This document shows positions 398 to 59,347 of a stretch of 64,000 nucleotides of DNA, one piece after another; within the stretch, counting starts at the first letter, position 1, and each line of letters begins with the position of its first letter. The notes under the pieces were generated by a model. The model did not search any database. It was given only the letters and a program-made list of their open reading frames with translations, and was not told where the DNA came from. The stretch lies in assembly GCA_016490735.1 (NCBI GenBank), contig JAEMWC010000385.1, forward strand, positions 65,001-129,000. Direction: 5' to 3'. The stretch is from Pachyseris speciosa (taxonomy: Eukaryota > Cnidaria > Anthozoa > Scleractinia > Pachyseridae). The position numbers and the translations under genes are program-made.

Positions 398-445
398 GGA
401 CTTCAACGGGGTTTGAACCCGTGACCTCGCGATTACCGGTGCGAT

Positions 446-471
<26 letters not shown>
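398..471 (-). tRNA. tRNA-Thr(GGT)-like repeat, copy 1 (probable SINE head, not a functional tRNA)
   Basis: The 74-nt block folds as a tRNA: a 7-bp acceptor stem (GGCTTCA with TGAAGTC), D arm GCTC...GAGC, T arm ACGGG-TTCAAAC-CCCGT. The anticodon arm is wrong: TCGCA-CCGGTAA is followed by TCGCGA where TGCGA would pair, so one extra C sits in the 3' strand. The base before the GGT triplet is C instead of the universal U33. All copies in this window share the extra C, so they descend from one source. I treat it as a SINE-type repeat. Confidence 0.6.
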
Positions 472-509: not shown

Positions 510-583
510 GACTTCATAGCTCAGTTGGTTAGAGCATCGCACCGGTAATCGCGAGGTCACGGGTTCAAACCCCGTTGAAGTCC
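510..583 (+). tRNA. tRNA-Thr(GGT)-like repeat, copy 2
   Basis: Same 74-nt block as copy 1 in the opposite orientation, with the same extra C in the anticodon arm. The 5' end reads GACTTCA instead of GGCTTCA, which breaks or weakens the top of the acceptor stem. It is the right arm of the inverted pair. Confidence 0.55.
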
Positions 584-754: not shown

Positions 755-785
<31 letters not shown>

Positions 786-960
786 TATCGCACCGGTAAT
801 CGCGAGGTCACGGGTTCAAACCCCGTTGAAGTCCTGAATTTTTTTTCAGGCTTCTTTTCGCAATTGCATAAATTGCGTTCACAACTGCGAGGATCATTTT
901 TCATTTGATTTCATTTCCGCAGTTCATATATGATTCATTTCATATATCATTCACACACTC
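700..960 (+). mobile_element. tRNA-like SINE copy 3
   Basis: The tRNA-like block occupies 761-834. It is preceded by a leader (GAACCCACAATTGACCTGCTCCCAA) also seen before the copy at 59.2 kb, and followed by the tail TTCAGG...GCAATTGCATAAATTGCG...TTCATATATGATTCATTTC shared by all copies. The D stem has GAGT for GAGC. Shared leader, head and tail show that the repeating unit is larger than a tRNA. Confidence 0.7.
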
Positions 961-1100
961 AAATTTGATTGCAATATTTTATTTCTACCAATTTTATTGT
1001 CCTCTTTTTTTTCTGACGTACTGTATCACTCTACATTAGGTATTTTAAGCATTGTCATCTCCAATAATCGAGTTTGGGTTCAGAGCGGTATTTATTTATC

Positions 1101-2708
1101 TCAAAGTTCCTCGTCACAGTCCAACTCACGGGCAAACGAGCAGATGCTTCTTCTGTACTGCTGTTGCTTTTCCTAGAAAGAAAAAATTAGAAGTACCATA
1201 TATTACCGGCCAATACAATGTGACTATAATATTATTTGGAACTGACTTCACTACCTTTCATATTTTACCACGGCTGTTCCTTTGTTGACTTAACTGACCA
1301 AAGGCTACATATTAAGTTACCTAGGAGATAACTTTTGGATTTTGACCATGGGGAAACAAAACGGAAGATATGAAGTCGTAGTTAAACCCTACAGGGTTTT
1401 TGTGACAGTTTTGAAATTCTAGTTTGATTTTCTCTTGTTGTAGTTGGGTAGACAACGGTAAAATAATGTAAGACGAGAAAGAATCTTACTCGGCATTGTG
1501 ACCTCGTGTTTGGAACGAACTGAATACATAGGAGAGACCTAGTGTAATGGTTTACCATGCTTACCTCTCTGATGCTTGCGTCCTCAAACTCATCGAACTT
1601 CCGACGCCTCTAACATTAAGTAAAATATAATTTCTTTAGTTTTTCTTTCATGTTAGCTACTATAGTTGGGAGCTCACTCTGCTGGTAAATGTTTAATGCA
1701 GGCATAAACAAAAAGACGAGAAGGACGAGGAGTTGAAAAATAAGCAGCAAAATAGGCTGTGGAGCCTGTGGAGCAGGCTCCACAGGCTCTTGTCAATTGA
1801 TATTCTACCTATCTGTTATTGGCATGAGTATTTGGAAGTGGTCTTTTTCTTTAAGGCCACCAATGGTGTTGTTTGTGTATCACATGACGTGCTCCGGTCC
1901 CTGAACGCATTGTTCCCACAAGGTTCACTAGAGCAAGCGCTAGCAATGCAAAATCTTTCAGACCAAAGAAGTGCCGTACTTCTACTTATCAACACTCTTT
2001 TTTTGTAAGAACTTCTAGAATCTGGAACGCTCTCCCCCTGCAGTTAAGATATGAACATGTAACTCCAAACCAATTTAAATCTCTGCTCTCCTCATACTAC
2101 AAAGATGCACTTATCTCGCGCCTCGATATTGAGGACCCTAGATCCTGGAAATCTGTCCGCTTAAAATGTAATACGCCACGCAACCTTTCAGAGCCTATTT
2201 CGTGTTGTTATTAGTTTACTATATTTTACTATTTTATTCGAGCGTTTAGAAATTTGTTAATCTTGGGCCCACAATAATTGGCGTCAGCTGTTGTTGACAC
2301 CCTGCCTTAACCACGTATTTGTTTATTTTTTTGTGTACGTCGTCATGTTTTTGTTAATAGTTTCTTTAGAAGGCGAAGTTAAATAAATAAAAATAAATAA
2401 ATGAATAAAAATAAGAAAGAGGAAACTTGGGCAATAAAAGGGTTTTGCTAAAGGATACAGTTATGGTTCACATACCCGGTGATTAGATTGACTTAGGACT
2501 TAGTCTTTCAGAGACGCGTAAATGACATAATATCTCTTAAGGATCTGGCTGTAAGTACTCAAAGATCAACCACTCACAACTAAAGTACAGCACGTTTTTG
2601 ACCTACTTTAAGACGGCCTTTTATTCCAGGTACCAGGCTATCAACATGCATCATCGTGGCTATGAAGAGAAGAAGGAAAACACAACGCACTGCAGCAGTC
2701 TTCTTCAT
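1101..2708 (-). CDS. Small secreted peptide precursor, copy A (two exons)
   Basis: Not a family I recognise. Exon 1 is 2708-2607 (34 codons, phase 0, donor AAA|GTAGGT). It begins with a clear signal peptide, MKKTAAVRCVFLLLFIAT. Exon 2 is 1172-1101, behind the acceptor TTTTTTCTTTCTAG, also phase 0. The model gives 57 aa. After a dibasic RR, exon 2 encodes SICSFARELDC then DEEL and a stop, so a two-Cys loop follows a possible proprotein cleavage site. Copy B has GGA where copy A has this TGA, so A is shorter at the C terminus. The 1.4-kb intron holds a LINE tail in the opposite orientation. A middle exon cannot be excluded. Confidence 0.5.
1733..2400 (+). mobile_element. 3' end of a non-LTR retrotransposon (LINE), fragment
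   Basis: The frame at 1733-2008 carries LPICYWHEYLEVVFFFKATNG, then shifts by one in a T run near 2001 to RTSRIWNALPLQLRYE, followed by LDIEDPRSWKSVRLKCN and a stop near 2215. This is the usual C terminus of coral LINE reverse transcriptases: a W-N-x-L-P motif and a DPRxWK block. A 3' UTR of about 170 bases ends in an AATAAATAAAAATAAAT tail near 2383, typical of LINE 3' ends. It is 5'-truncated and frameshifted, and lies antisense in the intron of peptide gene A. Confidence 0.75.
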
Positions 2709-3273
2709 TTTCAAACCTTATAAATGTTCTCAGATATTAGTTGGCCCTTAAAACGTTTGAACACTACTTTCGCTTCTCGGGAAGTTATGTTATTGCATTC
2801 TTGATAGCTTACTCAAAATTTTGCTTAGTCGTGCTGAGCTGGCCAATCAAGTGCCGGAACGGTTGATTGCAGTGATGGCTATTCAAAAGAAGACGACACC
2901 TAACCTGAGTAGACCTGACAACTGTCTGCTTTCGTTTTGATTGGCTTGTTGATTGTGGTAGACATCTTTGTGACGGTGGAACAGCTTATTGCTTATGAAA
3001 GATTTTGTAATTGGCGCTTATAGACCTTATAGTTTAGAGAAGCCCTAAATATATGGAGATATAACGTCGATTTCATTCTTTTCTTTACGTAAAAGTAAAA
3101 GTAAAAGTAAAATTAAAAGTAGTGCTAAGCTATAAATCCAGTGTTGCCGAAATTTCTGCACCAGTGCTACTTATTTCGCTGCCTGTTATAACGAGAATGA
3201 AGTTTATTAAGGAAGAAAAGGAAAATAACGCAAGAAATTGTTGTTGGATTTGTAATATAAACTGACAGTATAC

Positions 3274-3505
3274 GTTTCTAGATATTTCTGTTCGTAGGGT
3301 GAATGAGCAAAAACCTGGGTGCCGGTTTCGGTTAATTGCACGTTTTCCATAACAAATTGTTTGTCTTGCCAAAAAACAGCTGAAAATCGCATAAGTTTCT
3401 AGATATTTCTGTTTTGTGTTAATGAGCAAAAACGTGGGTGCCGGTTTCGGTCAAGTAGTTTTCCATAACAACTCATTTGTCCTACCTAAAAACAGCTGAG
3501 AATCT
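3274..3505. repeat. Tandem duplication, unit about 121 bp
   Basis: Two adjacent copies start with GTTTCTAGATATTTCTGTT at 3274 and 3395 and share GAGCAAAAACnTGGGTGCCGG and AAACAGCTGA. The copies differ by substitutions and small indels. No coding signal. It lies upstream of peptide gene A. Confidence 0.8.
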
Positions 3506-4492
3506 CTGTGATACTTTGCTTGGGTTGCTGGTTCCGAGTTTTCCGAGTTTATTTTGCTGGTTGTTTTTAAACGAAACAATTACGGGGGAAAAGTTCGAGT
3601 TAACATAATAATAATTATAATCTTACCACTTTCTTAGGAAGGAATTTCGCTCGTATGTCATAAAAACTGTTGTCAAAAAATATCTGAAGAAATGTTTCAA
3701 TTTAACTCTCTCCCAGGAGCTGAGCATTAAAACGTCAGCTTACCGTTACCATTCAAAATGAGGGTTTTTATTGAAGTGAAGGATCCCAAGGACTATGGTT
3801 TAACTTTTATTGAGAAATTTTTGTGCGCAGCCTGTAGAACCTATTAATTAAAAAAATTCTCTTCGTTTCGAGTGTTTTGAGCAAACTGTATTTCGAATAT
3901 TTGACTGGACTGGACTTGACGTGGAAAACGAGGAAGTATACAGTAACAAACAAACAAGATTACATAATGATATTAACAGCCAGTATTAGAACGGACATGT
4001 ACACATAACATAAAACTTGATGCATTGTAAACCGATGAGAGAAAAATGTTATTGCACCGCATCTTGTTTTTCTTTTACAAGAGCAATAATAGAAGCTTAT
4101 GTCGTCGGCAAAAGACGGGGCTTAACCATGAGGCAAACTGCAATGGTTTGAATGCGCCCGCGAAAATGTGCGTCCAAATAACGCAAGAAATTGTGCCAGG
4201 TTTGGATCACGTTACATGGTGTTTAACTTTCTGTTAAAGAGCTTGCTTCGGTATGAAAAGCACACCCAAAGACAAGGCATGTTTCGTGGCCACATCTTGG
4301 TGGTTTTGATAAAAGTCAGATAGAATGAGTGGATCCTTCTTTACATGCTTGTGGTAATATGTGTACTTCCTTTGCTGCCATTTTTCTTGAAAATGTCCTT
4401 ATGATTTGCATATGCACGCGGTTTTGGATTTTTTTATTTACTTATGCTCAAGTTAAAATTGTGGCTTTGTGTGGCTTTCTTTAGACGATAAT

Positions 4493-5364
4493 GGCTGTGG
4501 TCACACTTGGGATTTTACGTTAGTAAAAGACTTTAACCGTGGTAAAAAGGATGTAAAAAAACTTTACTATAGTAAAACTCATTAGTTGACTTAACACGTT
4601 CCAGATGGTTTCCTAAGAGAAATGTGTCACTCAAATGGTGAGCCTGGGGACAGGTGATAATTCTTACGACTGAATGTTTTATTTTTCATCCAGTTGCGTG
4701 ACTGTCTGTACATCTTTATCTCTAATTCTGCTGGATGGAACCCCGTAATGGAACCCCAACGTGTTATTTCTTTAATTGTCGCTCTTTTGTTTCTGATTAT
4801 TGCCATCAGAAAGGCCCAGAGATTGAGATACAGAACAGATAGAAGAAATTTGGCTACACGGAATAAAAAACACTTGAATTGAATGATTTACTTCTAAATT
4901 TATGCTCGACTCACAAATGAAACACGAACATCAGATGTAGGTGTATGATTCCTTGAAATCCAGAATTTACTGTGGACTTACCTCGAATGAAAGCGAAAAT
5001 TGTCTGACCACTGTGACATCTCTACTGTACTGTTTGGCGCGAAAAAAGGAAAAGAATAGGCTGGCGGCGCTGAAAATACATGTATAAGTATTCAGCAACG
5101 TGACACTCAAGGAACGCATCTCAAATAATGCGACAAGATGTCAACTGAATAAACAAAGTTTAGATATATCAGCGATAAACCATATCGTTTTAGGAAAGTT
5201 TACTACGGTAAACTTTGCTTTCATCCTACCGCCGTTGCCACCGCAACAGACTAGATCTGTGTTTACCATAGTAAAATGAGAAAAGCCGGTCACATTAGAA
5301 AACGTGTTTACAGTAGTAAACTCGACTTTACTATAGTAAAAAAAGCCCAAGTGTGACCACAGCC
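4493..5364. mobile_element. 872-bp TIR DNA transposon (non-autonomous)
   Basis: The ends are GGCTGTGGTCACACTTGGG and its reverse complement, and the inverted similarity continues inwards through TTTTACT..TAGTAAA. The element is flanked by AAT on both sides (4490-4492 and 5365-5367), a 3-bp target duplication as in PIF/Harbinger elements. A 62-codon frame at 4694 has a hydrophobic stretch followed by basic residues (KAQRLRYRTDRR) but no transposase domain I can name. Confidence 0.75.
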
Positions 5365-6357
5365 AATGAGGCGATTTAAGGAAATCGTTGTGGAAATTTC
5401 TCTTGTTAAATATTTTCAGTGACAGCAATTTTAATTTGCTTTATTGCTTTGCTTGTTAAAATAATTTCCATACCCTAATAAACATATGGTGGGAAATTCG
5501 TTTATATTTATTCTAATACAAGTTTTTCTGTTCATTTACTGTTCACTGATATATATGTATACGTGTTTAATTTAAAATGGTAGGATTACTTTTCTTCCAT
5601 GGTTTGCAAAGGACTGAATAAATCAAATTAAAAAAAAAAAGAAAACACAGAACTCCTGTGCTCACAGGTGACAAAAAAATTAACTGAAAACGTTTTGCAT
5701 GAATTCAGCAAGCATAAGGTTATTTATATCATGGACTGAAGTTTCACTTCAAGAAATAATCAGAGGGTTCTTCGTAGGCCGCGTTTTTCTTTCATGCTAT
5801 ATTTCATGTGTGAGAGAAAATAAAGGCAAGATATTTTTCGAAGAGGGCAAGAGCGGTTCACTAATAACTGAAGGTGTCAGAAACGCGCACGATTAGTACA
5901 TGTAGATCCCCTTTTTTCTTTTGTTTTCGAACAAGTCAGATTTCGGCTTTAAGGCCCTTAGATACAGGCTTCATAAACCTCACCGCCATAATTTAAATTC
6001 GATGTTTACTCCCTTTAGAGCTAAACCACACAGGACTTTATTGCCTTTCCCTCTAAACAGTGGAAGGTAAGTTTCGTTGGTATTGAGCTTTAAAAGCGAG
6101 GGGCTAATGAGTTGAGTTCTTCGAAAAGAATAGGGGACGCAGTTCCCGGTGTTTTAACCTGAGATGCTACAGCAGTGAAGCGCTTTTATAAAGAAAAAAA
6201 AAATAGCCGAGGCACTCCAAAAAATTCATTTAACTTTCTTTGCAGCATTTTATTTCCTTCATCTATAATTTAACATATTTTCTATATCCCTTTTCTTTAA
6301 CTTCCATTGACAAGCTGTACCGTGAGGATTTCAAGGATCAGGCGCCATTTCCAGTAA

Positions 6358-7384
6358 TCAAGCCTGGTTCCAGGACGACGTTTGTTCAACTCCAAGCTCC
6401 CTGTCACAGTCCAACTCACGGGCAACTGAGCAGATGCTTCTTCGGTAGTACTGTTGCTTCTCCTAGAAAGGAAATACAAACAATAGATATACTAACCGTA
6501 GAGTAACTGAAATTCAATTCCAAACGTACATCGAAGGCATTTAGTCCTTATTAAACTCGCTCTTTGTTTGACGGAACTAACTCAACCATTGATTAATTGA
6601 GAATAATTTAATAACCAAGAGTTTAAAAGAAAACAAATATTAAGGTGTGAAATCGTAACTTAAGCCTTAAATTTCGATCTGGCGGCTTTGAAGTTGAGGA
6701 AAAAAGAGAAAAATTTACCGTCTTTTCCTTTGGTATACCGACAACAGTGCGAAAGTGTGTTAAAATGGACGACGCAAGCACGGACACTGACAGAAATTGT
6801 TTTCTCACTTGAGCACCGCTTGTTGTAACTTACTCGTTGATGCAAGAAGTGAAAGTTTTTTGGATTAAGTTTTGAAATACGAAAATTTGAATCGAATTAT
6901 CTGAAGTGGTTTGGTTTTGTGAAAGGCATTTATGTGATCTCACTGCTTAATCTTGAAGGAAGGGTTTTTATTAACTCAATGATGCTGTCTTGGGATTTAA
7001 ACTTAAATTTATATAGTTGGAAAGGCGAGAAACAACCGAAGACAAACGCAGCCTGCAGAAAGTACATAAAATGTAAATCATGTTCAGAATTTCTGTAACA
7101 TACGATGGCTCCAAACGATAGTTTCTTAGAATAAATTACAGCGATGGTAATCTGCAGGAAAAGAAAGTAAAGGTTGTCTTTTAATGGTGCCAAACGTGAG
7201 TAATTAAAAGCTTAGTTGTCGAAGCCCTGAGAGTTTATAACTATGAGAGGTTTTAATTCACCTGTTTGTCAGGCGGGCTGGGTGGATGAGTTGCAAAGGG
7301 CCCGAAAGCTCCAGCATGTACACTGAACAATGAGCATGCTTGTAGCAAAAGAACAATGCAATACAGCGCTGTACTCTTTTTCAT
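6358..7384 (-). CDS. Small secreted peptide precursor, copy B (two exons)
   Basis: Family unknown. Exon 1 (7384-7262, 41 codons, phase 0, donor CAG|GTGAAT) starts with the signal peptide MKKSTALYCIVLLLQACS and continues into a short Pro-rich spacer (THPPSPPDKQ). Exon 2 (6462-6358) follows the acceptor TTTCCTTTCTAG in phase 0 and encodes EKQQYYRRSICSVARELDCD, then an acidic/Ser tail ending WNQA and a stop. The total is 75 aa. The predicted mature part after RR has two Cys separated by eight residues. Copies A, B and C keep this splice acceptor and the RRSIC core. I chose this frame over the one reading EEASAQLPVSW because phases agree with exon 1 in both A and B and the stop falls cleanly. Expression is untested. 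Confidence 0.55.
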
Positions 7385-7475
7385 CTCGGCTGTTTAAGGA
7401 TTAGTTTCTGCGATGTCAGGTTTCGCTCCTAACCAACTGTGTGTTGCAGCTGCTTTTCGAAGGAAGCTTCTTTCT

Positions 7476-7482
7476 CTTTATA
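7476..7482 (-). promoter_or_regulatory. TATA box of peptide gene B
   Basis: TATAAAG on the minus strand, 92 bp upstream of the ATG. The same CTTTATAACTAAGT block is kept upstream of copy C (near 20541), so the core promoter was part of the duplication. Confidence 0.45.
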
Positions 7483-7641
7483 ACTAAGTAAATATACAGG
7501 GCAGCTGTTAAGTTTTATGAAAACATGCGTGGTAATTACTGGGATCAGTTGTCATACTGACTTAACACAATACTTCTCTACATTGACAGGCAGGTTATGG
7601 AGTTGACATTTACTTCCGCGCTAATTGAGAGCAGAGTTTAA

Positions 7642-8072
7642 AGTGCCTATGAAGCGAAATTTGTTTCTCGCTAATTTTAAAGTTTAATCCATAAAACTCA
7701 ACATTCCAAAATTTGACGTGCTCTTGATTAAAATTGGTGATTTTACAAGCGTTTGAAAATGGCATTTGAATCGCGCGGCCAAAAAGACACGTGACAGTAG
7801 CTGTGACGTAATTTTGGGGACAAGTATTCCAACTATTTCACTATATTTCTTAAGCGCAAACACATTTTTGTACCCAAAATGACGTCACATCATAGAATTT
7901 CGCGAATAAACTCGACCCAGACCCCTGACCATTTTTAAAGGCAAAATAGCCCAACTTCAAATGCTCGAAAGATCGCCAATTTTAATCACGAGCACCTCAA
8001 ATTTTGAGATTCTTGCGTTTTTAGGGGTAAACTTTAAAATTAGCAAGAAACAAATTTTGCTTCATAGGCACT
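7642..8072. mobile_element. TTAA-flanked MITE (piggyBac-type)
   Basis: AGTGCCTATGAAGC at the left matches the reverse complement of the right end, GCTTCATAGGCACT, with long extended TIRs covering AAATTTGTTTCTnGCTAATTTTAAAGTTT. TTAA flanks both ends exactly (7638-7641 and 8073-8076), the target site of piggyBac transposases. No transposase frame. Confidence 0.8.
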
Positions 8073-8079
8073 TTAATTA

Positions 8080-11000
8080 CTTAAAGTCGAAGACAAGAGA
8101 AAATAACGCCAGAAATATATGTTTATTCCACAACGAGGTTTTTTAAATGAAATGCCTGCGACCGAAGCAAGGAAATATGGAATTTCCTATCCTCAGATGC
8201 TTTAGACGAAGGATTGGAACATTCAGCAATGAATCAAATCCCCCGTCGTATGATGAGCCCTGCGTGTTGTTTTAAGCAAAGGATACAGTTTTTTGAAAAA
8301 AAAAATTCCACCTTTGAGCATAAAACAGCCATAAAACAGCCATATTTTGCCCATAAAATGCCAAACCGAGTGAGAAAAACGAAAAAAACACGAATTTTAG
8401 CATTTTTGATTAAGCTCAGATCATGTCTTTTAGCGGAGCTCCGGCGGCCCGAAGGGCACCCAAGCGGAGCACCATACCTATAGAAAACCGTCAACTGCTT
8501 TTCTCATGGCAATCATGGCTAGCGGTATTGCTCGTGGTCGCTTACGCACGACGACGACGACGACGTTGTCCAATAATTAATAATATCCTAATATATAATA
8601 ATCATAATAGTCCAACATGGAGGTCATACTCTACCTGGCCCAGCTGTCTACTGCGTACGTCTTTGATACTGGACATTCATCTTATAGCCAATTAACAGAT
8701 TGGCACCTGTCAAAACAAGGTATCCGCTGACCAGTGTCACGTAACCATATCGTGGGCTTAAGTTTAGACCTAATCGGGGTCAGCTGTTTCTTTGAAGTTG
8801 AACGCTGACCAGGTACTTGCTTTCGATCGCAGGCTCAAGCCAGGTGTGGACACCCAAACCAAAACAAGGCTTAATTGTTTGCGCGCTTTCTGGGGCTCGT
8901 AATTTCACATTGCGTTGGTTTCTTCATTTTGAGCAAAAGAACTTCATCTTCTTCGATCAAAATTTGTCTTTTAATTCGCGTAAAAGGCATAAAAATCAAG
9001 AACTTGTCAAAAGAGACTCCGGAAGGTGAATTTTCAAGTAATAAAAGGAGGAGAGAAAGATTTTTCTCAGGAAAAGTTTCAAACTCGGATCGATTGTGTA
9101 GTTGAAAACAAAATAGTTCAACGATTCAAGGGCTTTCACTTTACCGCGGCATCTTGCACCTCACCAAGAAAGGTCAATTAACAGTTCACGGGCATCAATG
9201 GGAGGAACGAGTAGCTCAAACTCTGTGGAAGAAGCTCTTTCTTTGGACAAACCGTTTGCTATTTTTGCGGATGCTTGTTTTTACTTTACTGAAGCTTACG
9301 TATTTTCAAGTGGTAGAAACCTCTACAACACAGGACAGTGAGGTAAATTAAATAAATTGAAGCTTAACATTTAGTTTAATCGTCGTTACTTTTGTTCAGG
9401 AATGGAACTTGTATTTTTCTCTCGACTGGATATAAATAATAAACATCTGTACTCGTTTTGGACGCAAGACGTTGTTTTGTGAAAGCGAACGAGTATTTTT
9501 ACTGTGCTTGGCTGACTGTTTTTCGACCTCGGTGCCTCAACAGCGTTAAGAAACTTTTATCCTTATCTTATTAACACGTATTCGCAATGAGTCCTCTTAA
9601 GATTAAGGATTAAAGCTAACGTTCGGTGGCTGAACGGACAAACAATATTTGGACCAAACACTAGACAGAGCGAGTCCACAGAACGCGAAGCTCCGCGCGC
9701 CGAAGAGGCGCCCGAGGAGCACCATGGTTAAGAAAATATGGTAACCCATCTGCTCGAGAAAATTTGGTTTTGGTCACCGTACGACCGACCGTACGACCGA
9801 GCGTACGCCTACCCCTCCATGTATGCCAAGTGAAAATTCAGACTCGAGATAAACCTGAAATCGTTGGAAAAACGAATAAAAAATCTGAAGACAATAAGAG
9901 AGGAAACTTATGATCTTTTAGCGGTATCGGCATTGTATTTTCTGGGCCGTAGGCGGACGAAAATTGTTACCGAGGCAATGCCGGTTAAAAAAGAACACCT
10001 TTTGAAAATAATGTATGTCCTCTTACAGGAACCTCAAACAAATGCTTAACGCAACTGTGAAACTGGAGAGCCTGCTTTATATTTTCTTAAGACACACACA
10101 ATAAAAAAAATACCATAAACTCTACATTTTTACCGTGGCTAGTGCCCTGATCAAATGCATGTGCACATCTCAAAATCTGATAGAAAGTGTCAATAACTAG
10201 CGCAATTCACACTTCATTGATAAGGACTGTAAACAATCCACGTTTTGCCCTATCACTTTGATTAATTCTCGAGTTTTTGTTTGTTTGTTTGTTAGTATGA
10301 ACCGGTAAGGATCAACGTTACTTTGGATATTTTTGCTTGCTGTGTACGTGTCTGCGAGGGAAATTTGTTTTTAAAAACTTTAATTATAAAATCTGACATA
10401 AAGTTGTCAAAAAGCTGTCAAAAATGTCAAAAACCAGCGCGCTTCATTTGAAAAAGTTTTAGAGATCTTCGTCGAAAGCGGCCTGTAAACAACAATTAAG
10501 TTTCGCCGTCTATAAAAATGTCGTCTTTAATTTGTTTGAACCCGTAAGAAACAGCGTTCGATGTTAAAAACAGGTTGACTGGCTAGCTGGCTGTGTTAAC
10601 ATGTTGACGGGTCTGCGAGAGAAATGTTCGTGTGGTTTGGCAAGCGCTTTCTTCGTTAACTGGATGATTTTTTGCAACTGAGAATCATTAACTGAAGAAA
10701 ATTTTTCGGAAGACATGAGAGGTAACAGTAAAACTAACAAAGCACTTTAGGGTTTTGTGTCTGCTTAGCCAAGGAAAGATTTTGTGGGAAACGGTGCTAT
10801 TATTCAGCTCTGCCGTGTTCCGAGGGATTGCTGCCTGTGATTCCTGTTGGCTGCTCTAAACTGGTGCGGACCTCTTTTTTGTCTTTTCTACGGGCATTTA
10901 TGTCAAAATTGCTTAGCAATTTTTCTAGCTTAATAAAAGATATTTTTGCTACTTTTCGCAATTTCTCAACCTTCTCCAAGGATCTTCGAAGAAAAATTAA

Positions 11001-11330
11001 TTCTTTGTGCTACAATTGTATGTGGTCTTGTTTAATTTCTCCACCATCTCCAAGAATCTTCGAACAAACATTCCGCTTTGATCCGCTTTGAATTCCTTTA
11101 CGCTTTTATCTGAAAGTAGTTTGGACTCAAGAATGTCTGTCTTTTTCTTTTCTCTCTTCGTTTTCCCTGCTGCTGCTCAATTTTTTTGGAAACAAATTGA
11201 ACTGGCCCAAGGAAAGCCATGCGAAGTTACTCGGCGATTTTAGGCTAAGCCTGGCTAAATTGATTTAATTGGATTTGATTTGAGATTTGTAATTAGTAGG
11301 CGAAGAGCCACCTTTTGGAAGTACTACTAA
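8080..11330. other. Intergenic stretch, no supported gene
   Basis: Contains short frames up to 90 codons without recognisable domains, two GC-rich repeats of the type GGAGCTCCGGCGGCCCGAAG (near 8435 and 9690), a CGACGACGACG run near 8550 and repeated CGTACGACCG near 9780. Near 11270-11335 an AGTAGGCGAAGAGCCACC segment leads into the TTA repeat and looks like a retroelement 3' tail. I see no exon with both splice sites and coding signal. Confidence 0.4.
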
Positions 11331-11336
11331 TAAATC

Positions 11337-11376
<40 letters not shown>
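11337..11376. repeat. (ATT)n microsatellite
   Basis: About 13 uninterrupted ATT units following AATAAATCG. The position after AGTACTACTAATAAATCG suggests the tail of a degraded non-LTR element rather than a free microsatellite. Confidence 0.85.
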
Positions 11377-11377
<1 letters not shown>

Positions 11378-11379
11378 AA

Positions 11380-12415
11380 GTGAAACCGGAAATAACAATA
11401 TATAATTATATATCCCATAAAAAGGTAGATATAAGGCAAAGAACAAAATGATGGTCGAAAAGGGTAACTTTTAATGCCATATATTACGGCGAGACATGAC
11501 AAACCTTCTTCAGGGGCAACACTGAAGCAAAGTAAAAATGGAGAAAACGGTTACAATACAGAAATAGAAATAATAGACGTGTACTGAAGCGGCTACCAAA
11601 AAGTGGCATTCCAAGGTGGCATTCCCAAGGTGGTAAGAACAACGATAAGTTGTGATGAATTTGCAATTTTGTTAGACTCTGCAACAAAGTTAAGACATAA
11701 GTAGATACTGCTACGTAAGGGGTAGAACCAGAAGAAAAAAGTACAATCAGTTGAAGGTTCAGAACCCCTGCCCCACCCATTCATGCACTACTGACTTATT
11801 ATTTAGACCTTGTAGACATTGTTTCTCTCACTTAACTTCTCATGGTTTTGAAAGTTGTTTGTTGCTGAGCCAGCAAGCCAGAGCTTACTAATAAATGTAA
11901 AAAAAAAAAAAATGGTTGTATTGAAATTTGGGGGTTAAATGTTGTACAGACGGAAGATTGTATTCATATTTTTGTGGATATTTATTATGAGTGGGCTTGG
12001 ATCGAGGCAAGTGTATTTGTACTTCTTTGGGAAAATAGTTGATTATTTTTCTTTATTATTTTTACCTTTTTTAGTTTTTGCATATTAATTCATTCATACC
12101 AGAAATCACAAGTGTTAGTTGAGAGAGAGAGGGAGAGATGCTCTGAAAACACGTCTATCCGCTCTTGTTCTGACAGTTTTTTTAGTTCGCGATAAACCAA
12201 AAATTAAATGTTTTGCAATTTTTTTCTTTGGTTAAAATTACGAAGGAAGACATTGCCCGCTATGTTTGTCATTGAATCGTAGATTCTCCACACCTCGCGA
12301 TTCACGCGTCATTTTGTTTAACCAATCACAGAAAGTGAATCGACCTTCTGAAACGAAGCGACGGTTTGCTTGCGACAGCGCTGTAGCTGTGGTGAAAGTG
12401 GTATTTGCGGTCAAG
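11380..12415. other. Intergenic stretch, nothing recognised
   Basis: Minus-strand frames at 11484-11784 overlap one another and carry no domain. A short GAGAGAGAGG run lies near 12121. No splice-consistent exon seen. Confidence 0.4.
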
Positions 12416-12419
12416 TTTA

Positions 12420-12860
12420 ACAAAGTAATGGGAAATTTCTAGTCCGAAGCTTAACTACATTCAAAACGGTGAAACGATTTTGAAATTTGGTTCATCCTGT
12501 CTCATAAAACCTTAGACCAAGTCAGTGGATTAACGAGCACATGAACGCTGTGCGATACCTCGTTCGACTCTCTCGTTCCGCCACTTCGACTAGGTCACCT
12601 GAAGATGTGTTAGACTGTGAAAAGATTTGTGTGGTGAAAGAGCTGTGGTGAAAAGCTGAAAAGGTCGCCAAAATGGGAGATTTGCCGTCAAATTCAACTA
12701 GGTAATGGAAAATTTCTAGTCCGAAGCATAAAACTTTAGATCAAGTCAGTGGATTAACGACGTCCACGTCAACGCTGTGCGATACCTCGTTCGACTCCAC
12801 TCTCCTTCCGCCACTTCGACTAGGTCACCTGAAGATGTGTTAGACTGTGAAAATATTTTT
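12420..12860. repeat. Imperfect tandem duplication of about 230-280 bp
   Basis: TTTCTAGTCCGAAGC occurs near 12437 and 12713. AGTCAGTGGATTAACGA and ACCTCGTTCGACTC...CGCCACTTCGACTAGGTCAC occur about 226 bp apart (from 12518 and from 12744). GAAGATGTGTTAGACTGTG closes both. No open reading frame runs through either copy. Confidence 0.75.
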
Positions 12861-15154
12861 AACTGGCTACTCTGGAAAGAATTATATCAAGGCTTGATGG
12901 ACGGCTTTTTGGATGTATCTAAAGCGTTGTGAAAGGGATTGTATTCGCGCCGCGACTGCATTCGACAACACATAAATTTTCACGCTGTGCTTTGAGCATG
13001 ACTAAAGACGAAGGATGTGCGATTTACGCAGTGGCCCGAAGTAGCCTTTTCGACGATTGGAGAAGGTATTTACCGTTGACCTTTTATTTAGTCGTTTTCT
13101 TCAAAAAACTTACGGTCAACCGATAAGCCAGATAAGCGTTGTCTTTGTTTATGTGCCCAACTTTTGTATGGCTCGGCAAGTAGTTAAGCCTACTCTCAAA
13201 TTTGGTTTTCAAGTTTATCGTCAGTTTGTTTGTGAAGAAGATTTTCAGGATTTCTGTGTTGGACCCATTCTTATAGCAAATTACATTTTAATTTCCCCTC
13301 AATTTAAAAAATAGATTCAAATGAAATTTACCGTAAGCTTAAGCTTATAATTTAAACATTGTTGTAAAAAGGTTTTTCCTCAGACTACCATTGTAAATAG
13401 GTGCCACAAACCAGAAGCGTAACACTTTGTAAAACTGCCAAATCGATTAAAACAATTATTTGCTAATCTTTCTTTGTTTTTTTCGACTGGTTCTTGGTCG
13501 GTTTTGACATAAACTTAAGTACTTGACGTCTTCAGAGTTATTAAGCTTAGGTACTTTCCGCGTTTAGCGCGCACGTACACGAACTCGCACAAACAGCCGT
13601 GATTTTAAAACTTTTCTCTGTTTCTGCTGAATCGTTGACATACAATTTTTAGCTTTATAAAATTGAATTAAATTATGTGAATCCCCATGCATTACAACCC
13701 CTGTGAAAACGTTTTTTGTAGTACAGTAATTTTTCAGATACAACAAAATGTTTTGCCACTCAAATTAAACTTTTTATGTGTCGGAATCGTGTAATTCATT
13801 AGGGTAATCCATTTGAAAGCACGAACTGTTCCAGTATTTGTTTATGCGCAACTATTTTTCTTATGCCAATACTTTGAATAATGGCTTTATTGTACACTTT
13901 GCTATAATTGTAATAGGGAATTTAGTTCATGGACAGTATAAAATAAAGTTTTGATGTCTGTGTGAATGAAGGTAACGTTTTAAGTTCCGGTTGAAAATAA
14001 AGTAATCATTTATTCCGTCACTGTTTAAGATACGCTTTTAACCTTCAAATATCGTATTTAGTAAAATTACTGAGCTTGCATCGGTTGCCTTAAACAACTT
14101 TAATTGTTTCATTTAATGTTAGCATTAATTTGATTTCATTCGCATTGCTGCAACTTCTGGTTTAAGTTTTATAATTTCAAGAATTAAACAACACTTTTTC
14201 GGTGGGACGTGCATTTAAGTGTACCACAAACGCGCTTTTTTTTTTGTTTTGTTTTTTAACAAACAGCAACAACTATCTGTATCAACTTACCTTGTCAAGT
14301 ATACATTGTCCCTGAGCAGACAGCAGCCATAAAAAAAAAAAATTAAAAAAGTCGTCAAAAGTTCCGTTTAAAGAAAATGCAAGTCCAGTCCGTTGTCCAG
14401 TCCTTGGAATTTTTTTTTCTAGCTAACCTTTTGTGGCGCGGCGTCGCAGTGAACAAAAAGCGCGCGAAAGTATAGCCTCGTTTTCGTTCTTTCCACCAGG
14501 CCCTCTCCTCTGAAAAAAATCTTAAACATCGATCCTCGCCAAAAGCAATTGAAATTAGAAGAAACTGACAACGCCATCATAAAGAGCATACTCTCAAGCC
14601 TTAGGCAAAATTTTCTTTTATTCCTACCTCAAATGGTTGTTGAGCAGGAAGCTGGCAAACTTTTCAGTTAGATTTTCTACTGCCGCACTTTTTTAGGAAA
14701 AAGTAATCATGGCCATTTATTAAAACACTATTTATTAAACTACAACTTCGCTTAAAAATATTCTTGGAGAAAGGTTCTAGTAAACTTTTAGAGCGAATAT
14801 TAAACTTCGGTCCGTTCTGGTCACGTGACCAATGACGTCACAGCATTAAAAAATGACAAAAATGTATATTTCATAAAAATATCTACCAATAGAGTACTTA
14901 AGTGTGACGTCACGCCCCATGGCAACGAGATTTTCAGTTCTAAACAAAATTTTTGAAGCCTAGCAACGCTACTGCGAGGCAATCAAGTTTGCGTTGACGT
15001 ACCGTTGTAAGGTTATAACCATCAAAGATTTCTTCAATGAATCGATTTATGGTTTTGTTTTGAATCTGAGACACCCAACAAACCTTTGAAGCCCTTGAAA
15101 AAGGAATATTACTTTTTAACTGTGTAGAATAAACGCCGGGATTGAAAGACCGTG
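12860..15154. other. Intergenic stretch, no supported gene
   Basis: Two overlapping plus frames at 12929-13314 (65 and 85 codons) show no known domain and share no frame with flanking splice sites. The rest is AT-rich with T and A homopolymers. Confidence 0.35.
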
Positions 15155-16960
15155 ATGGTTGAATGTTTTGCTCCAGGCTGCAATCACCATTCAGAATCAC
15201 ATACGTGCAAATTCTTCTCGTTTCCAAAAAAAATCAAGAAAAGTCCGAATACCAACGATGGATTCGACTAATAAGGTAAGATAAATTTATATTTCTTTGA
15301 GTAAAACGTAGGCTTCAGTCATCAAATTTTGTTTTTAAAGCGCCGTGTTTGATCGTTCAGCTTAAACACGCGGCCTACGCGGCTTCTCTCTGTCTGTGTA
15401 GTTGTTGGAGGGTTTTCTTTATTTTTTTTTACCGCAAAAAATTAAATAATTTTGTTTACCGCTAGTTCTGTGAGTATAAAAGAACAATTTCCATCACATA
15501 CATGTATTTACAAAGTGTGTTAGAAGCTGTCTCTAATCTAGTGTTGATTTAGGTTTGCGTATTGACGTATATTAACATGGTAAGAACTGACTGAATAGTT
15601 TTGTTTGCTTTTATGAAAACGTACGTTGGAGAAAACCTGTTAACTTCCACCCAGTCCCAGATGATGTGTTTTTTTCCTAGGTGGTTACACTCAATCGGTG
15701 AAAACTTCCTGATGCGTTAAAACAAAAACAATAAAATCGTGCATTTAAAACTGTGCTAGTTTTGACTTAAGTGAAGATTTGCTCACAGAGATGGGATCAG
15801 TTTCTCACTTATTGGTTTAATTTTAAAACAGTAAAATTAAAAACAGTTTAGAGTTTGGTTTCAGGTAGTGTATCGGTATTGTAAGGCTCAATCTTCCTTT
15901 GATTTCGGCTATGAACGATTCATAACTTCTTCCTAGAAACTTCGGTTTTTCGCGTGGAAAGTTAACTAACGTTTTTATTCTTGTAACAGGAGGGAAGACA
16001 GAGAGCCTAGTGGGCATTCCAGAATTTGCAGCTGCCATTTTCGAGACGGAAACAAATCTGCTGGTCCAGAAATCTACTCCCGAAATTCTGATAAACTGTT
16101 TCCATCAGAAATGTCTCCCCCACAAAAGAAGAAAAAGCAGAGTGCTCCTGTGAAAGAGGATGTGGTAAAGAAGATATGGTAAGGAAGATATGGTCCGAAA
16201 ACAGGAAGAGGTCACCCTTGAAGAACTGAAACCTCCAACTGATAAGATTATTCTTGAGGCCGAACTTGATCTTGCAAAAAGACAGATGAAGCAGCAGGAA
16301 TGCAATGCCCAGTACCAAAGATCGCATTACTCAGCTTCTACTCTCAGTGCAGACGTTATACGTATGGAGACTGGACTTCCAACAAAGGAGGTTTTCCAGA
16401 TTGTTGTAAACTATGCTTCTAGATTTAGGGACTCCATGTCGTACTACGCGGGTTGGAAAGTAGAGTCAATGCTGTTTGAAGATCAAATCTTAATCACGTT
16501 AATGAATTTGAGACAAAATTATACTAATCTCTACCTAGCTCAACTGTACTCTTGTAGTGTCACAACAATTTCTAATATTGTGACAACGTTCGTTCATGTG
16601 TTACATAAGATTTTGTTTAAGGACGTGATGACATCCATTCCTACTAGGGAGAAAAACAAGTTATGTTCACCGTCATCTTTCTCAATGTTTAGCAGCTGCA
16701 GAATAGTCATTGACTGTACTGACATAGAAATTGTAACACCCTGTCTCATGAGCCAACAAAATGCAACCTACTCAAGTTACAGGGGAATGAATTCTTTTAA
16801 AGTTATAGTGGGGTTGCGCCCAATGCAGTCATTACATATGTTAGTAACCTATATCCAGGGTCAATATCAGATAAGGAAATAGTCCGTCAATCGGGCTACT
16901 CAATCATATGGTACCAGGTGATTTGATCCTCGCCTCATTTCATAAATCAGACAGTCTGAT
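15155..16960 (+). pseudogene. THAP-domain / DDE_Tnp_4-type transposase pseudogene
   Basis: Exon 1 (15155-15275, donor AAG|GTAAGA) opens with MVECFAPGCNHHSESHTCKF, the C-x4-C and FxxFP start of a C2CH THAP DNA-binding domain. The frame then shifts in an A8 run before YQRWIRLIR. Exon 2 (from 15990, after TTGTAACAG) completes the THAP domain with SRICSCHFRDGN and KLFP. A TAA at 16180 follows a local GATATGGTAAGGAA near-duplication. A frame from 16190 carries the helix-turn-helix region and the first catalytic motif IDCTD. Single-base losses near 16815 and 16895 shift the frame again; the second motif (SDKEI) is visible in another frame. Sequence similarity ends at a palindrome near 16936. Domesticated THAP genes exist, but the four disruptions argue for a dead transposon. 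Confidence 0.8.
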
Positions 16961-16970
16961 TTATGAAATG
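16936..16970. repeat. Perfect 35-nt palindrome
   Basis: CATTTCATAAATCAGAC, a single A, then the exact reverse complement. It sits exactly where recognisable transposase homology stops, so it may mark a deletion or end-joining junction. Confidence 0.95.
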
Positions 16971-16999
16971 TTATTCATAAAGAAGAAAAGGCCATGCTT

Positions 17000-17640
17000 G
17001 AACACACAATCAGACTCCATACGTGCAAAAACTATTTATTTAAACTTGTCACTTGTTACCTGCATATTTTACATTTTATCGCCTTGCACGGTATATATTA
17101 TGTTGTAAATTTTATTCTCTGTTCACTTGAAAATGATGACATGGAGTCATCGAAACGTTGTGTAAAACTTCTTTCGCTTATTTTTATTATAAGATATTTA
17201 ATTATCATTATTATTAAATGGTCTTCAGCTCTTCTTTTTTCAATCGCAACATAACAGACTGGAATAATATTCCATCGAACATCATGCATGCACCTTCTTA
17301 AGCAGTTTTAAGTCCTATCTATTACATTATTTGTGTCAAATTTAAATCAGATGTAACTTGTGAGTGACAAGTATGTAGTTTAATTAGGTTAGCTTTGGGT
17401 TGTATTTAAATTTTATTTCTTAATTTTTAGTGTCAATCTCAAATCAGGGGTGACTTGTTAGAGACAAGCATTCGATTTAATTTAATTAAGTTAGCTTTTG
17501 ACCGCGTTTAAATTTCACCTCTTAGTTTTTAGTATGTTTAATATTGGACAATATTCTTTGTATGGAAATTTATTTTCTCCCAATTATTCTCCAGTCATAC
17601 ACTTTTTTTGTTTTGTATCAACTTACCTGTATGTTCATGA
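17000..17640. other. Repeat-derived intergenic stretch
   Basis: Near 17133-17160 GATGACATGGAGTCATCGAAACG resembles the conserved core of a hammerhead-type motif found in Penelope-like elements. Near 17255-17330 the frame TDWNNIPSNIMHAP, shifted into SSFKSYLLHYL, resembles the C-terminal tail of a LINE reverse transcriptase. Both are short, degraded and low confidence. Confidence 0.35.
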
Positions 17641-18047
17641 CAAAGTATTATTTGTATAGCGCTTTATACAAAAGTTCTAAGGCACTTCACAATAAAAGAA
17701 GAAAATAGAATTATAAAACTTACATTACCAAATGAATAAAATAACGTTTAAAAAGATCAGTTTTTAAAGATGATTTAAAAGTGCTGACACTGGAGCTACG
17801 CCTAATATAGCTGGGAACGCAGTTCCATAATTTGGGTGCATAGATAGAAAATGCTCAGTCTCGATAAGTTTTCAGATTTGATGTAGGAACTTGAAGCAGA
17901 AATTTAGATGAAGACCGTAATAAACTATTTGGGGTGTATAAGTGCAGAAGGTTACTAATGGAACAAGGAGCTAAGCTATTAAGAGCCTTAAGGGTTATTA
18001 AAAGTAATTTTAAAGTATTGCGATGTTCCATGGGCAGCCAATGAACT
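17640..18047 (-). mobile_element. LINE reverse transcriptase C-terminal remnant
   Basis: On the minus strand the frame reads LKALNSLAPCSISNLL...YTPNSLLRSSSKFLL...LKTYRD, a stop, then AFSIYAPKLWNCVPSYIRR and SVSTFKSSLKTDLFKRYF. This is the classic tail of L2/CR1-like reverse transcriptases (APxYI...LRSS...GDRAFSxAAPKLWNSLPxxIR...FKxxLKTxLF). The conserved Gly of GDRAFS is replaced by a stop, so it is an inactive 5'-truncated copy. Confidence 0.75.
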
Positions 18048-18145
18048 TAAACTTAAACTTAAAGTAAGCTCTTTCTCATCAATGTACACATCCTTTGGAC
18101 TTCCTTCTTCTGCATATAGTCTTTAATTTTATTAGTAGCTGGTAT

Positions 18146-18177
18146 CTTGTCCAGAACTGCTAGCAGTTCTGGACAAG
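18146..18177. repeat. Perfect 32-nt palindrome
   Basis: CTTGTCCAGAACTGCT and its exact reverse complement, without loop. It lies in a 64-codon minus frame (18059-18253) with no recognised domain. Confidence 0.95.
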
Positions 18178-18552
18178 GGGCTAAAATCTGATCCACAAGC
18201 AGGTCTGGGCTGGAGGGTGCAAATCCGCGGGGGATCCAAATCCGCTGTACCACTGGTTCAGATCACCTTTCCGTACTATTTTCTACAGCATTGCGTCTGA
18301 AGCTTGAGTGAGGTCAGATGGGTGATATGACAAGCAGACTATATGTAAAGTCCAGTAAAAAAAATGCTTTTGGAACTCCGCTTTTAGTCTTGGCTAAATA
18401 TATATATATTACACAGGTACACCGTCGCTTTGAAATCGCTACCGTTTGAATAAACATAAACAAAGTAACAGAAACAACACGTTTGAGGTGCAATTAGTGG
18501 AGCGAGATGTATTCATGAGCTGGCTCACAGGAGCCTTTGATTTTTATAAGAC

Positions 18553-20572
18553 CAGTTTTTCTGTTCATTTACTGTTCACTGAAATGTGTGTATAGGTGTT
18601 GGAATTTCAAATCGCGGAATGTTTTGGTATTTTCAATGATTTGCAAAGGATTGAATAAATCAAATGGAAAAACAAGAACAAAAACATAGAACTCATCAAG
18701 AAATAATCAGAGGGTTCTTCGTAGGCTGCGCCTTTTCTCTCATGCAATATTTCCTTGAACTTCATGTGTGAGAGCAAATAAAGATAAGGTATTTTTATCG
18801 TAGAAGTCGAGAACGAGGCCTCCAAAGGGTGGTCTGGTGTTTTGGGAGAAGACTGCCCGATGTTTTTGGAGCCATGTCGCTTGTCGCTTCTACCCTTTGT
18901 AAGGCCTCAAGAGCGGCTCACAATTAAGTGAAGATGGCAAAAACTCACAAGATTAGTAAGCCCCCTTTTCCGTACCAGTAGTTGTTTCGTTTTGGAAAGA
19001 GACAGATTTCGACTATACGGCCATTTGTGTACAGGCTTTTTAAACTTCCCCGCCATAATTAAAATTTGATTTTTACTCACTTTTAGAAATGAAACGCACG
19101 GGATGTAATTTCCTTTCTCTCTAAAAAGTATGAGGCAGGTTTTGTTGGCACTGAGTGATAAAAGCAGGGTGTATTGAGCTGAGTTCGATTTTTTTAACTT
19201 AAGATGCTATTTCAGTGAGCCGCTTTGAGCCGAAACACTAAAAAAAAATTCATTTCACAGAATTTACAGAATCGCCATTTTCAGTAGGACGACGTTTGTT
19301 CATCTCCAAGCTCCCTACTACAGTCCAACTCACAGGCAACTGAGCAGATGCTTCTTCGGTAGTACTATTGATTCTCCTAGAAAGAAAATGGAAACAATAG
19401 ATATACTAACCGTAGAGTAACTAAATTCAGTAAATTCCAACCGCGCATCCAGGGCATCTAATAATAATTTAATAATAATAATAATTTATAACGTATATAG
19501 CCCATTTTCCATGTGTATATGATCAAATGATCTATCCATATTAAACTCGCTATTTGTATGACCTTTGACGGAACTAAATCAGCCCTCGATGTAATATATC
19601 AACAACCAGTGCGAGTATTTCATCAGGGGTTCCAAACACCAAGAAATTGATGAAAGCGCGAAGCCGAAGACCGAGCGCTTTTATTGTTTCGAGGTGGTTG
19701 GAACCTCTGATGAAATACGAAGCCCGAGTTGTCGATATGACTTCTCAAAGGAAACATTACAGAATTCTTCAGTGTTAAAGTTTTGTCCTTTTCCACTTAT
19801 ACAAGAACGTGTTTGCATGCATGTTTAAGTAGGGTCCGACCACGAGGGAAGAAGGAACGTAAAGTTTGGGGATTCGAATACGATCTACGAAGAAGAGAAT
19901 TCAGTTGGTCGAGAAAGCTATCGCCCGTCAAGAAAGCATAAGAGCAAGAAGGCTACAAATAAGAAGCGAGAAAGTGAGCTAAAATGTACGATACACGCAC
20001 GAACACTGGCAGAAGTTGTTTGCTTACTTAATCACCTTTGTTTTGTAACGTCCTCGGTGATGCAGAAAAATATGAAAGTTTTTAGGATAAAGTCTTGAAA
20101 TATCAAATTGGCATCGAATTGTTTGACGTCGCGTTTTCTGGGTTATAAAGACGAGAAACGAGAGAAAGTACATATAATGAATCGAAATCTTGTTCAGAAT
20201 TTCCTTAACATGCGATGGCTCCAAAAGATAGTTTCTTAGAATAAGTTACGTAACTATACTGAGCGCTAGGAAAACAAACTAAAGGTTAAGACTTTCGAAG
20301 CCCTGAAAGTGTGAGGATCCTCTTGCCCATGTGTTTTGGTTTACTCGGTGGATGTGTTGCTGCGATTATGAAACCTCCATCTACACTGAACAATGAACAT
20401 GCTTGTAGCAAAAGAACAATGCAACACAGCGCTGAAGTTGTTTTCATCTCGGTTCTTTAAGGATTAGTTTCTGCGACGTTCAGCTTCACTCTCAACGAAC
20501 TGTATGTTGCTGTTGCTTTTGGAAGGAAGGTACTTTCTCTTTATAACTAAGTTAAAGGGCAGCTGTTAATAT
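18553..20572. repeat. Duplicated block carrying peptide pseudogene C
   Basis: Direct-orientation partner of 5522-7512 (see there). It has extra sequence between the two exons, including an AATAATAATTTAATAATAAT run near 19465, absent from the first copy. Confidence 0.8.
19281..20447 (-). pseudogene. Small secreted peptide precursor, copy C (decayed)
   Basis: Exon 1 starts at 20447 with MKTTSALCCIVLLLQACS, nearly identical to copy B. The base pair that forms the GT donor in B is GG here, so the exon reads on to a stop. Exon 2 (from 19376, after TTTTCTTTCTAG) keeps YYRRSICSVA and ELDC but has an in-frame TAG at codon 4 and Arg to Cys before ELDC. Loss of the donor plus the early stop makes function unlikely. 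Confidence 0.6.
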
Positions 20573-20954: not shown

Positions 20955-21935
20955 TTAAGACGTTAAGCCTTCATCAGTTATAACGACGCTTGATATTGCG
21001 TGATTTAAAATTAAAAATAACGTTGCGCGAGCGCTACGCGCGTGACTACAGAGAATGTTTCTGCGCGAGAGTCTTAAGTTAAAAGGGGCGCCAAACACTT
21101 ATAGACTTCTGGGATGACGATATGGTCGTTCCCAGCGTTCGTATCTTTCATTGACATCCAAGCTTCAAGGAAAAGCCGTTTATGGTAATTTGGCTCATGT
21201 CCGACGACTTTAACATTGTCAAAGTCCATCTGATGGTGACATTCGTGGACATGGCTCGCAACGTTTGAATTTTCGTCAAACATCAATACAAAGTTGAGAG
21301 CCATGTCCACGAATGTCACCATGAGATGGACTTTGACAATGTAAAAGTTGTCGGACATGAGCCAAATTACCATAAACGGCTTTTCCTTGAAGCTTGAATG
21401 TCTGTGAAAGATACGAACGCTGGGAACGACGACGTATGCGTTTAATCTGATTTTATCTCTTGTTATTCCTTTTTCAGACAACTGAAATTATGCATATGAA
21501 AGCGAGTATCTGTCTATTCCTCATTTGTTGAAGTCATCATAATTGAACGAGATCCTAGACCAACAAGCCATCCGTGTTTTGTTTGATTTAATTTCTGCTT
21601 CGTGTAAAAACCAAATGAAAGATGGTTGTTAGATAATTAAGGCACTCAGCGTTGTCTCCCAAATTTTTGCAACAGGAAACACGGGGTTGATGTTTAAGCT
21701 TATTTATCAATTATTAATTAACACCTCGCTCAAATCCTTATTTCAAATTCGATCGAATTCGAATAAACCAGGAGTAATTTTGGATTTTCTGATTCCTAAA
21801 TGACGACGGACGACGGGCGACCTTACTCTGTTTTGTATCTAATTCGAAAATTGTAAAACCAGGCGCTGTTATTTTAGGTATATCAAACCGACGTTTCGGC
21901 AATGCTGCGTTCTTCAGGGTGCAAGACTAAAAACC
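20955..21935 (-). mobile_element. Penelope-like element remnant with GIY-YIG C-terminus
   Basis: The minus frame at 21074-21481 contains SNVASHVHECHHQMDFDNV and HKRLFLEAWMSMKDTNAGND...VIPEVYKCLA. I read this as the C-terminal endonuclease region of Penelope-like retroelements. A hammerhead-like core lies upstream on the same strand (21887-21918, CTGAAGAACGC...GCCGAAACGTC) and a second, CTGATGAAGGCTTAACGTC, lies downstream (20959-20977), fitting the pLTR layout of these elements. The reverse transcriptase is gone. Confidence 0.65.
21125..21431. repeat. Inverted repeat of the Penelope-like C-terminus
   Basis: Arms at about 21125-21254 and 21298-21431 are reverse complements with few mismatches, separated by about 45 bp. 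Each arm encodes the same HHxMDFDNVKVVGHEPNYHK segment outwards on its own strand. Confidence 0.85.
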
Positions 21936-59185: not shown

Positions 59186-59226
<41 letters not shown>

Positions 59227-59347
59227 ATCGCACCGGTAATCGCGAGGTCACGTGTTCAAACCCCGTTGAAGTCCTGAATTTATTTTTTCAAGCTTCCTTT
59301 CGCAATTGCTTAAATTGCGTTCACAACTGCGAGGATCATTCTTCAGT
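59140..59347 (+). mobile_element. tRNA-like SINE copy 4
   Basis: tRNA-like block at 59201-59274 with the same extra C in the anticodon arm, and a G to T change that breaks the T stem (ACGTG). The leader (GAACCCACAACTGACCTGCTCCCAA) and tail are shared with copy 3 near 0.8 kb. Confidence 0.75.

What the first reader, a model, noticed from the sequence alone, without database searches (positions are those of the whole stretch)
1101..20447. Candidate family of small secreted two-Cys peptides in three copies
Three minus-strand loci share a signal-peptide exon and a second exon with the same splice acceptor (TTTCTAG|GA) and the core RRSICSxAxELDC. In A and B the junction is phase 0 on both sides, and the stop codon falls after an acidic tail. 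A dibasic RR precedes the two-Cys loop, as in processed neuropeptide or venom-like precursors. I know no named family with this core. Seen: exons, frames, splice signals. Inferred: that they are translated and processed.
Basis: partly seen in the sequence, partly recalled or inferred. Interest (0 to 1): 0.75.

Follow-up and report, generated by a model that had tools for sequence, protein, structure and literature searches.

The report
Orphan small secreted-peptide gene trio
Three neighbouring copies of a tiny two-exon animal gene, two apparently intact and one broken, probably encode a short secreted peptide with one cysteine pair that matches nothing in the databases reached here, although the reading frame of its second half is not fully settled.

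Summary
Three minus-strand loci (A 1101-2708, B 6358-7384, C 19281-20447) share a signal-peptide-like exon and a second exon behind the same acceptor, beyond chance. A and B splice in phase 0 from their best-scoring donors into the shared acceptor, giving 57 and 75 aa. An AATAAA starts 118 and 104 nt after their stops. C is broken: no usable donor, an in-frame stop, a 16-nt deletion in the tail.

The exon-2 frame is in doubt. Splice phase favours the two-Cys frame. Dibasic processing is unproven: residues before RR are as conserved as those after it. A variable spacer before a conserved C-terminal unit looks more hormone-like than venom-like. No relative was found in Pfam, PDB, the protein database or two DNA collections, which hold little animal sequence. 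The own-genome search did not complete. Interest is moderate.

The parts
2607..2708 (-). Copy A exon 1: signal peptide and short spacer (34 codons), donor AAA|GTAGGT at 2606
1101..1172 (-). Copy A exon 2: EKQQQYRRSICSFARELDCDEEL and stop; acceptor TTTCTTTCTAG|GA
978..1100 (-). Copy A 3' UTR candidate; AATAAA starts 103 and 118 nt after the stop (another at 5 nt)
   Evidence: one search counts one base too many for A
7262..7384 (-). Copy B exon 1: signal peptide and spacer (41 codons), donor CAG|GTGAAT at 7261
6358..6462 (-). Copy B exon 2: EKQQYYRRSICSVARELDCDRELGVEQTSSWNQA and stop
6249..6357 (-). Copy B 3' UTR candidate; AATAAA starts 104 nt after the stop, in a local context like that in A
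7477..7482 (-). TATAAA 98 nt upstream of the B start codon (also in C; not at this place in A)
20331..20447 (-). Copy C exon 1, end approximate: signal peptide kept, no GT at the donor place
19281..19376 (-). Copy C exon 2 remnant: core kept but a stop codon interrupts the two-Cys frame; 16 nt missing in the tail
7070..7139 (-). Intron segment conserved between B and C (89%), possibly regulatory or an alternative exon; no counterpart found in A

Best explanation
A and B are paralogous two-exon genes for a small secreted peptide. Shown from sequence: exon 1 encodes a signal-peptide-like start and a variable spacer, exon 2 (in the frame that splicing in phase 0 gives) a conserved C-terminal unit of 23 residues that starts at the splice junction and holds two cysteines with seven residues between them; C is a broken duplicate. 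Inferred: that exons 1 and 2 are joined and translated; that the two cysteines form one disulfide, either a loop within the peptide or a bridge between two peptides; that the conserved unit is the active part; and that it acts as an extracellular signal (paracrine or hormone-like), since the spacer varies in sequence and length while the C-terminal unit is 20 of 23 identical. The RR may or may not be a cleavage site.
For: Only three copies of each exon in the window, same order and strand. Best donor, in phase 0, plus the shared acceptor in both A and B. Exon 1 coding P 0.0026; exon 2 two-Cys frame A-B P 0.013, dN/dS 0.23; joint P 0.00045, while 0 of 10 non-exon B-C blocks reached P 0.05 in any frame (these are B-C, not A-B, and blocks under 65% identity or under 45 nt were dropped uncounted). 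Signal-peptide rank 5-7 of 452. In the B-C block the signal-peptide part of exon 1 (95%) and exon 2 (91-94%) are among the most conserved windows, though one intron segment also reaches 91% and the 3' part of exon 1 falls to 52%. AATAAA at a similar place in A and B, TATAAA in B and C. Single-sequence AlphaFold2 of B exon 2: helices 2-14 and 19-22, mean pLDDT 61, low confidence.
Against: The rival exon-2 frame is open in A, B and C, and A-B similarity continues past A's two-Cys stop with a coding-like pattern in that rival frame (14 codons, P 0.018). The joint test with exon 1 is slightly better for the rival (0.00015 against 0.00045). B-C substitutions do not support the two-Cys frame in exon 2 (P 0.83) nor the MKK frame in exon 1 (P 0.42), and A-C does not support the two-Cys frame (P 0.28); this fits only if C is dead. 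In B another acceptor (7151) scores higher than the shared one (8.5 against 7.3). No transcript or peptide evidence. No homologue in anything searched. No conserved amidation signal.
Confidence: 0.42

Rival explanations
1. Exon 2 is read in the other frame (..RSNSTTEEASAQLPVSWTVTGSLELNKRRPGTRLDYW..), giving a secreted or other protein without the two cysteines, through a phase-2 donor or an unseen middle exon.
For: Open in all three copies; A-B P 0.012 over 37 codons, B-C P 0.043, A-C P 0.041; 3' part alone P 0.018; joint P with exon 1 0.00015; nucleotide similarity runs beyond the two-Cys stop of A.
Against: No phase-2 donor within 30-200 nt of the ATG joins it to exon 1: the one competitive site in A (2577) lies after a stop, and the best in B scores -7.2. 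In the first 23 codons alone its P is 0.12 against 0.013. C lacks a donor, so its open frame means little. One search ran 18 such tests and and 58 more, so P near 0.01 is weak for either frame.
Confidence: 0.23
2. Two-Cys frame is right, but the peptide is an effector (venom or host-defence peptide) rather than a signal.
For: Small, secreted, locally duplicated with one dead copy, which is common for such genes (recalled).
Against: The C-terminal unit is conserved (20 of 23, dN/dS 0.23) while the spacer varies, the reverse of the usual fast-evolving mature toxin (recalled); only two cysteines; the part after RR is acidic in A, unlike cationic antimicrobial peptides (recalled). No match in Pfam.
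Confidence: 0.17
3. The whole set is decaying: A and B are also non-functional, or transcribed without a translated product.
For: C is broken; no homologues found; short open frames occur by chance.
Against: B keeps splice sites, frame, AATAAA and TATAAA; coding-like substitutions in exon 1 between A and B. No Rfam family there.
Confidence: 0.13

Closest known systems
Cnidarian neuropeptide preprohormones (passages seen in PMC7523074)
   Same: Signal peptide, small precursor, basic residues near the candidate peptide.
   Different: Those carry multiple peptide copies with G before KR, RR or R; here there is a single unit, RR lies before the candidate peptide, and there is no conserved G-basic signal (A alone has a GR in its spacer).
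Insulin/relaxin superfamily
   Same: A short SICS string before a second Cys, with RR just upstream, recalls the end of an insulin A chain (recalled resemblance).
   Different: Two cysteines after the signal peptide instead of six, spacing seven instead of eight residues (family features recalled), no B chain; no Pfam match at E up to 10 and no PDB match of the 23-residue unit.
SCRiP coral cysteine-rich proteins (PMC2652719, search listing only)
   Same: Taxonomically restricted family (title); small and secreted (recalled).
   Different: Cysteine-rich by title, where this has two cysteines after the signal peptide.

Membership tests
Cnidarian amidated neuropeptide preprohormones | Multiple peptide copies each followed by G plus basic residues | tested here: not met
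   Models A and B hold one unit and no conserved G-basic site; feature as in passages of PMC7523074
Cnidarian amidated neuropeptide preprohormones | Signal peptide | tested here: met
   Rank 5-7 of 452 by a home-made score; SignalP not available
Insulin/relaxin superfamily | Six conserved cysteines in B and A chains (recalled) | tested here: not met
   Two cysteines after the signal peptide in A and B; no Pfam hit
SCRiP family | Cysteine-rich mature peptide | tested here: not met
   Two cysteines after the signal peptide; eight in SCRiPs is recalled
Small secreted peptide gene family (general kind) | Transcribed, spliced and secreted | not testable with these tools
   No RNA or protein data; splice and signal features only

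The most novel reading that the evidence does not exclude
A new animal peptide-signal family with a single disulfide, whose conserved C-terminal exon is unrelated to any named hormone, neuropeptide or toxin; at the extreme, exon 2 is under constraint in two overlapping frames.
Probability: 0.22. Interest if true: 0.55.

Novelty: new member of a known kind. Interest (0 to 1): 0.36.

Why it matters
If translated, it adds an unnamed secreted peptide family, of a size that gene callers easily miss, to the candidate ligands of this animal. If only the rival frame is real, it is a useful warning that a neat cysteine motif in a short exon can be an out-of-frame reading.

Tried and rejected
Homologues: three protein-database searches, with model B, with B exon 1 joined to the rival frame, and with model A, found no candidate sharing three words. 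Pfam up to E 10 gave 0 families for 3 of 3 queries. PDB gave 3 weak matches for B (E 0.61, 0.62, 1.2; judged chance) and 0 for the 23-residue unit. DNA patterns gave 0 hits in viral contigs and genome contigs, collections of viruses and of bacteria and archaea. Papers: motif-string searches found 0; topical searches listed 20 of 40, 12 of 70, 0 of 0 and 4 of 4 papers, none naming such a family in title or abstract start.

Considered and rejected: an insulin relative (cysteines, no hit); a middle exon in B (strong acceptor at 7151 and a conserved segment, but C reads into a stop there, by eye, and blastn shows no counterpart in A); a known RNA family (one search lists only four tRNAs); more distant copies in the window (none). 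One search timed out and was rerun in faster form, with fewer replicates. The long low-score listing was cut by the tool; what is shown beyond A, B and C is noise.

Full report
What is there. On the minus strand the window holds three copies of a two-exon unit. Exon 1 is at 2708-2607 (A), 7384-7262 (B) and 20447 to about 20331 (C); exon 2 is at 1172-1101, 6462-6358 and 19376-19281. A degenerate pattern for the core, with three mismatches allowed, matches these three places and no other; 100 shuffles gave no match. DNA profiles of each exon find the three copies with E from 2e-65 to 2e-28, and nothing else below E 0.69 (exon 2) or 1.5 (exon 1); the profiles were built from the copies themselves. 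The window is animal DNA: among 10 ORFs scanned, Pfam finds an amiloride-sensitive channel, ZP-N and EGF domains.

Gene structure. In each of the two intact copies the best-scoring donor 30-200 nt after the ATG lies in phase 0 of the exon 1 frame (A AAA|GTAGGT, score 2.6, next best 2.2; B CAG|GTGAAT, score 4.7), and the shared acceptor scores 8.4, 7.3 and 8.8 in A, B and C: the best in A and C, second in B after a site at 7151 with 8.5 (weights recalled, not trained on this genome). Splicing gives 57 and 75 aa. The three ATG starts look like signal peptides, rank 5, 6 and 7 of 452 ATG starts with 30 open codons in the window (home-made score). AATAAA starts 118 nt (A) and 104 nt (B) after the stop in a similar local context; A has two more, at 5 and 103 nt, and none was found in the 300 nt below C; B and C share TATAAA 98 nt before the ATG. 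In the global alignment of the B-C block, identity is 95% in the signal-peptide part of exon 1 and 91-94% over exon 2; one intron segment (7132-7076) also reaches 91%, the 3' part of exon 1 falls to 52%, and much of the intron is at 38-54%. blastn finds two intron pieces, 161 and 61 nt, at 77%.

Copy C is broken in the two-Cys frame. There is no GT at the donor place (best donor 30-200 nt after its ATG -1.8), exon 2 has a stop after three codons, and its tail lacks 16 nt that B has (with that gap 43 of 50 bases agree, without it 35). Between B and C the two-Cys frame shows no constraint (dN/dS 1.32 with the stop codon left out, P 0.83).

Which frame. Replacing the observed substitutions at random positions, the A-B score of exon 1 in the MKK frame (22 codons) has P 0.0026. 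In exon 2 the two-Cys frame has P 0.013 over 23 codons (dN/dS 0.23) and the rival frame P 0.12 over the same stretch, but P 0.012 over 37 codons, because similarity continues past A's two-Cys stop (14 codons, P 0.018). The other pairs favour the rival: B-C 0.043 against 0.83, A-C 0.041 against 0.28, which counts only if C is alive in that frame. B-C exon 1 in the MKK frame is not distinguished from chance (P 0.42). Joint A-B P with exon 1 is 0.00045 for the two-Cys frame and 0.00015 for the rival. As a control, 0 of 10 non-exon B-C blocks reached P 0.05 in any frame (lowest 0.065; blocks under 45 nt or 65% identity were dropped, their number not printed). So the exons look coding, but substitutions do not choose between the two frames. 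Splice phase does: no usable phase-2 donor joins exon 1 to the rival frame in A or B. I put the two-Cys frame at roughly three to one.

Processing and function. Between A and B the spacer after the signal peptide differs in sequence and length, while exon 2 is 20 of 23 identical, including the eight residues EKQQxYRR (7 of 8). If RR were only a cleavage site, the residues before it should drift like the spacer; they do not. The conserved unit therefore begins at the exon border. Single-sequence AlphaFold2 of B exon 2 suggests a helix over residues 2-14 and a short one at 19-22, at low confidence (mean pLDDT 61.4). Two cysteines eight positions apart would not meet within one regular helix, so a bend or a bridge between two peptides is needed if they pair (inference). 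A conserved C-terminal unit behind a free spacer is the pattern of a ligand more than of a fast-evolving toxin (recalled generalisation).

Known relatives. None in Pfam, PDB, the protein database or the two DNA collections. These reach few animal genes, so absence is weak evidence. Papers: passages of PMC7523074, PMC11087051 and PMC9545775 and the abstract and outline of PMC13044578 were seen; the passages seen describe no peptide of this kind. Other papers were seen in listings only.

Verdict. A real, small, probably functional secreted-peptide gene pair with a broken third copy; an orphan of a known kind; frame and function unproven.

Noticed in passing
42398-43127 (+): Two ORFs match the amiloride-sensitive (DEG/ENaC) channel family PF00858 (E 5e-4, below the curated cut-off, and 3e-18).
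   Followed up: partly
27833-28480 (-) and 37371-37805 (+): Two ORFs with ZP-N domains on opposite strands.
   Followed up: partly
398-471 (-), 510-583 (+), 761-834 (+), 59201-59274 (+): Four tRNA-like genes, with repeated flanks at least around the first three; ARAGORN gives a four-base anticodon reading (ggta) for all four.
   Followed up: no
7070-7139 and 20180-20249 (-): Intron segment of B and C 89% identical, with a strong acceptor at 7151 in B.
   Followed up: partly
21125-21430: Inverted repeat with 141-nt arms, 94% complementary, 24 nt apart.
   Followed up: no
16169-16882 (+): Transposase-like ORF between copies B and C (HTH_Tnp_4 above, DDE_Tnp_4 below the curated cut-off).
   Followed up: partly
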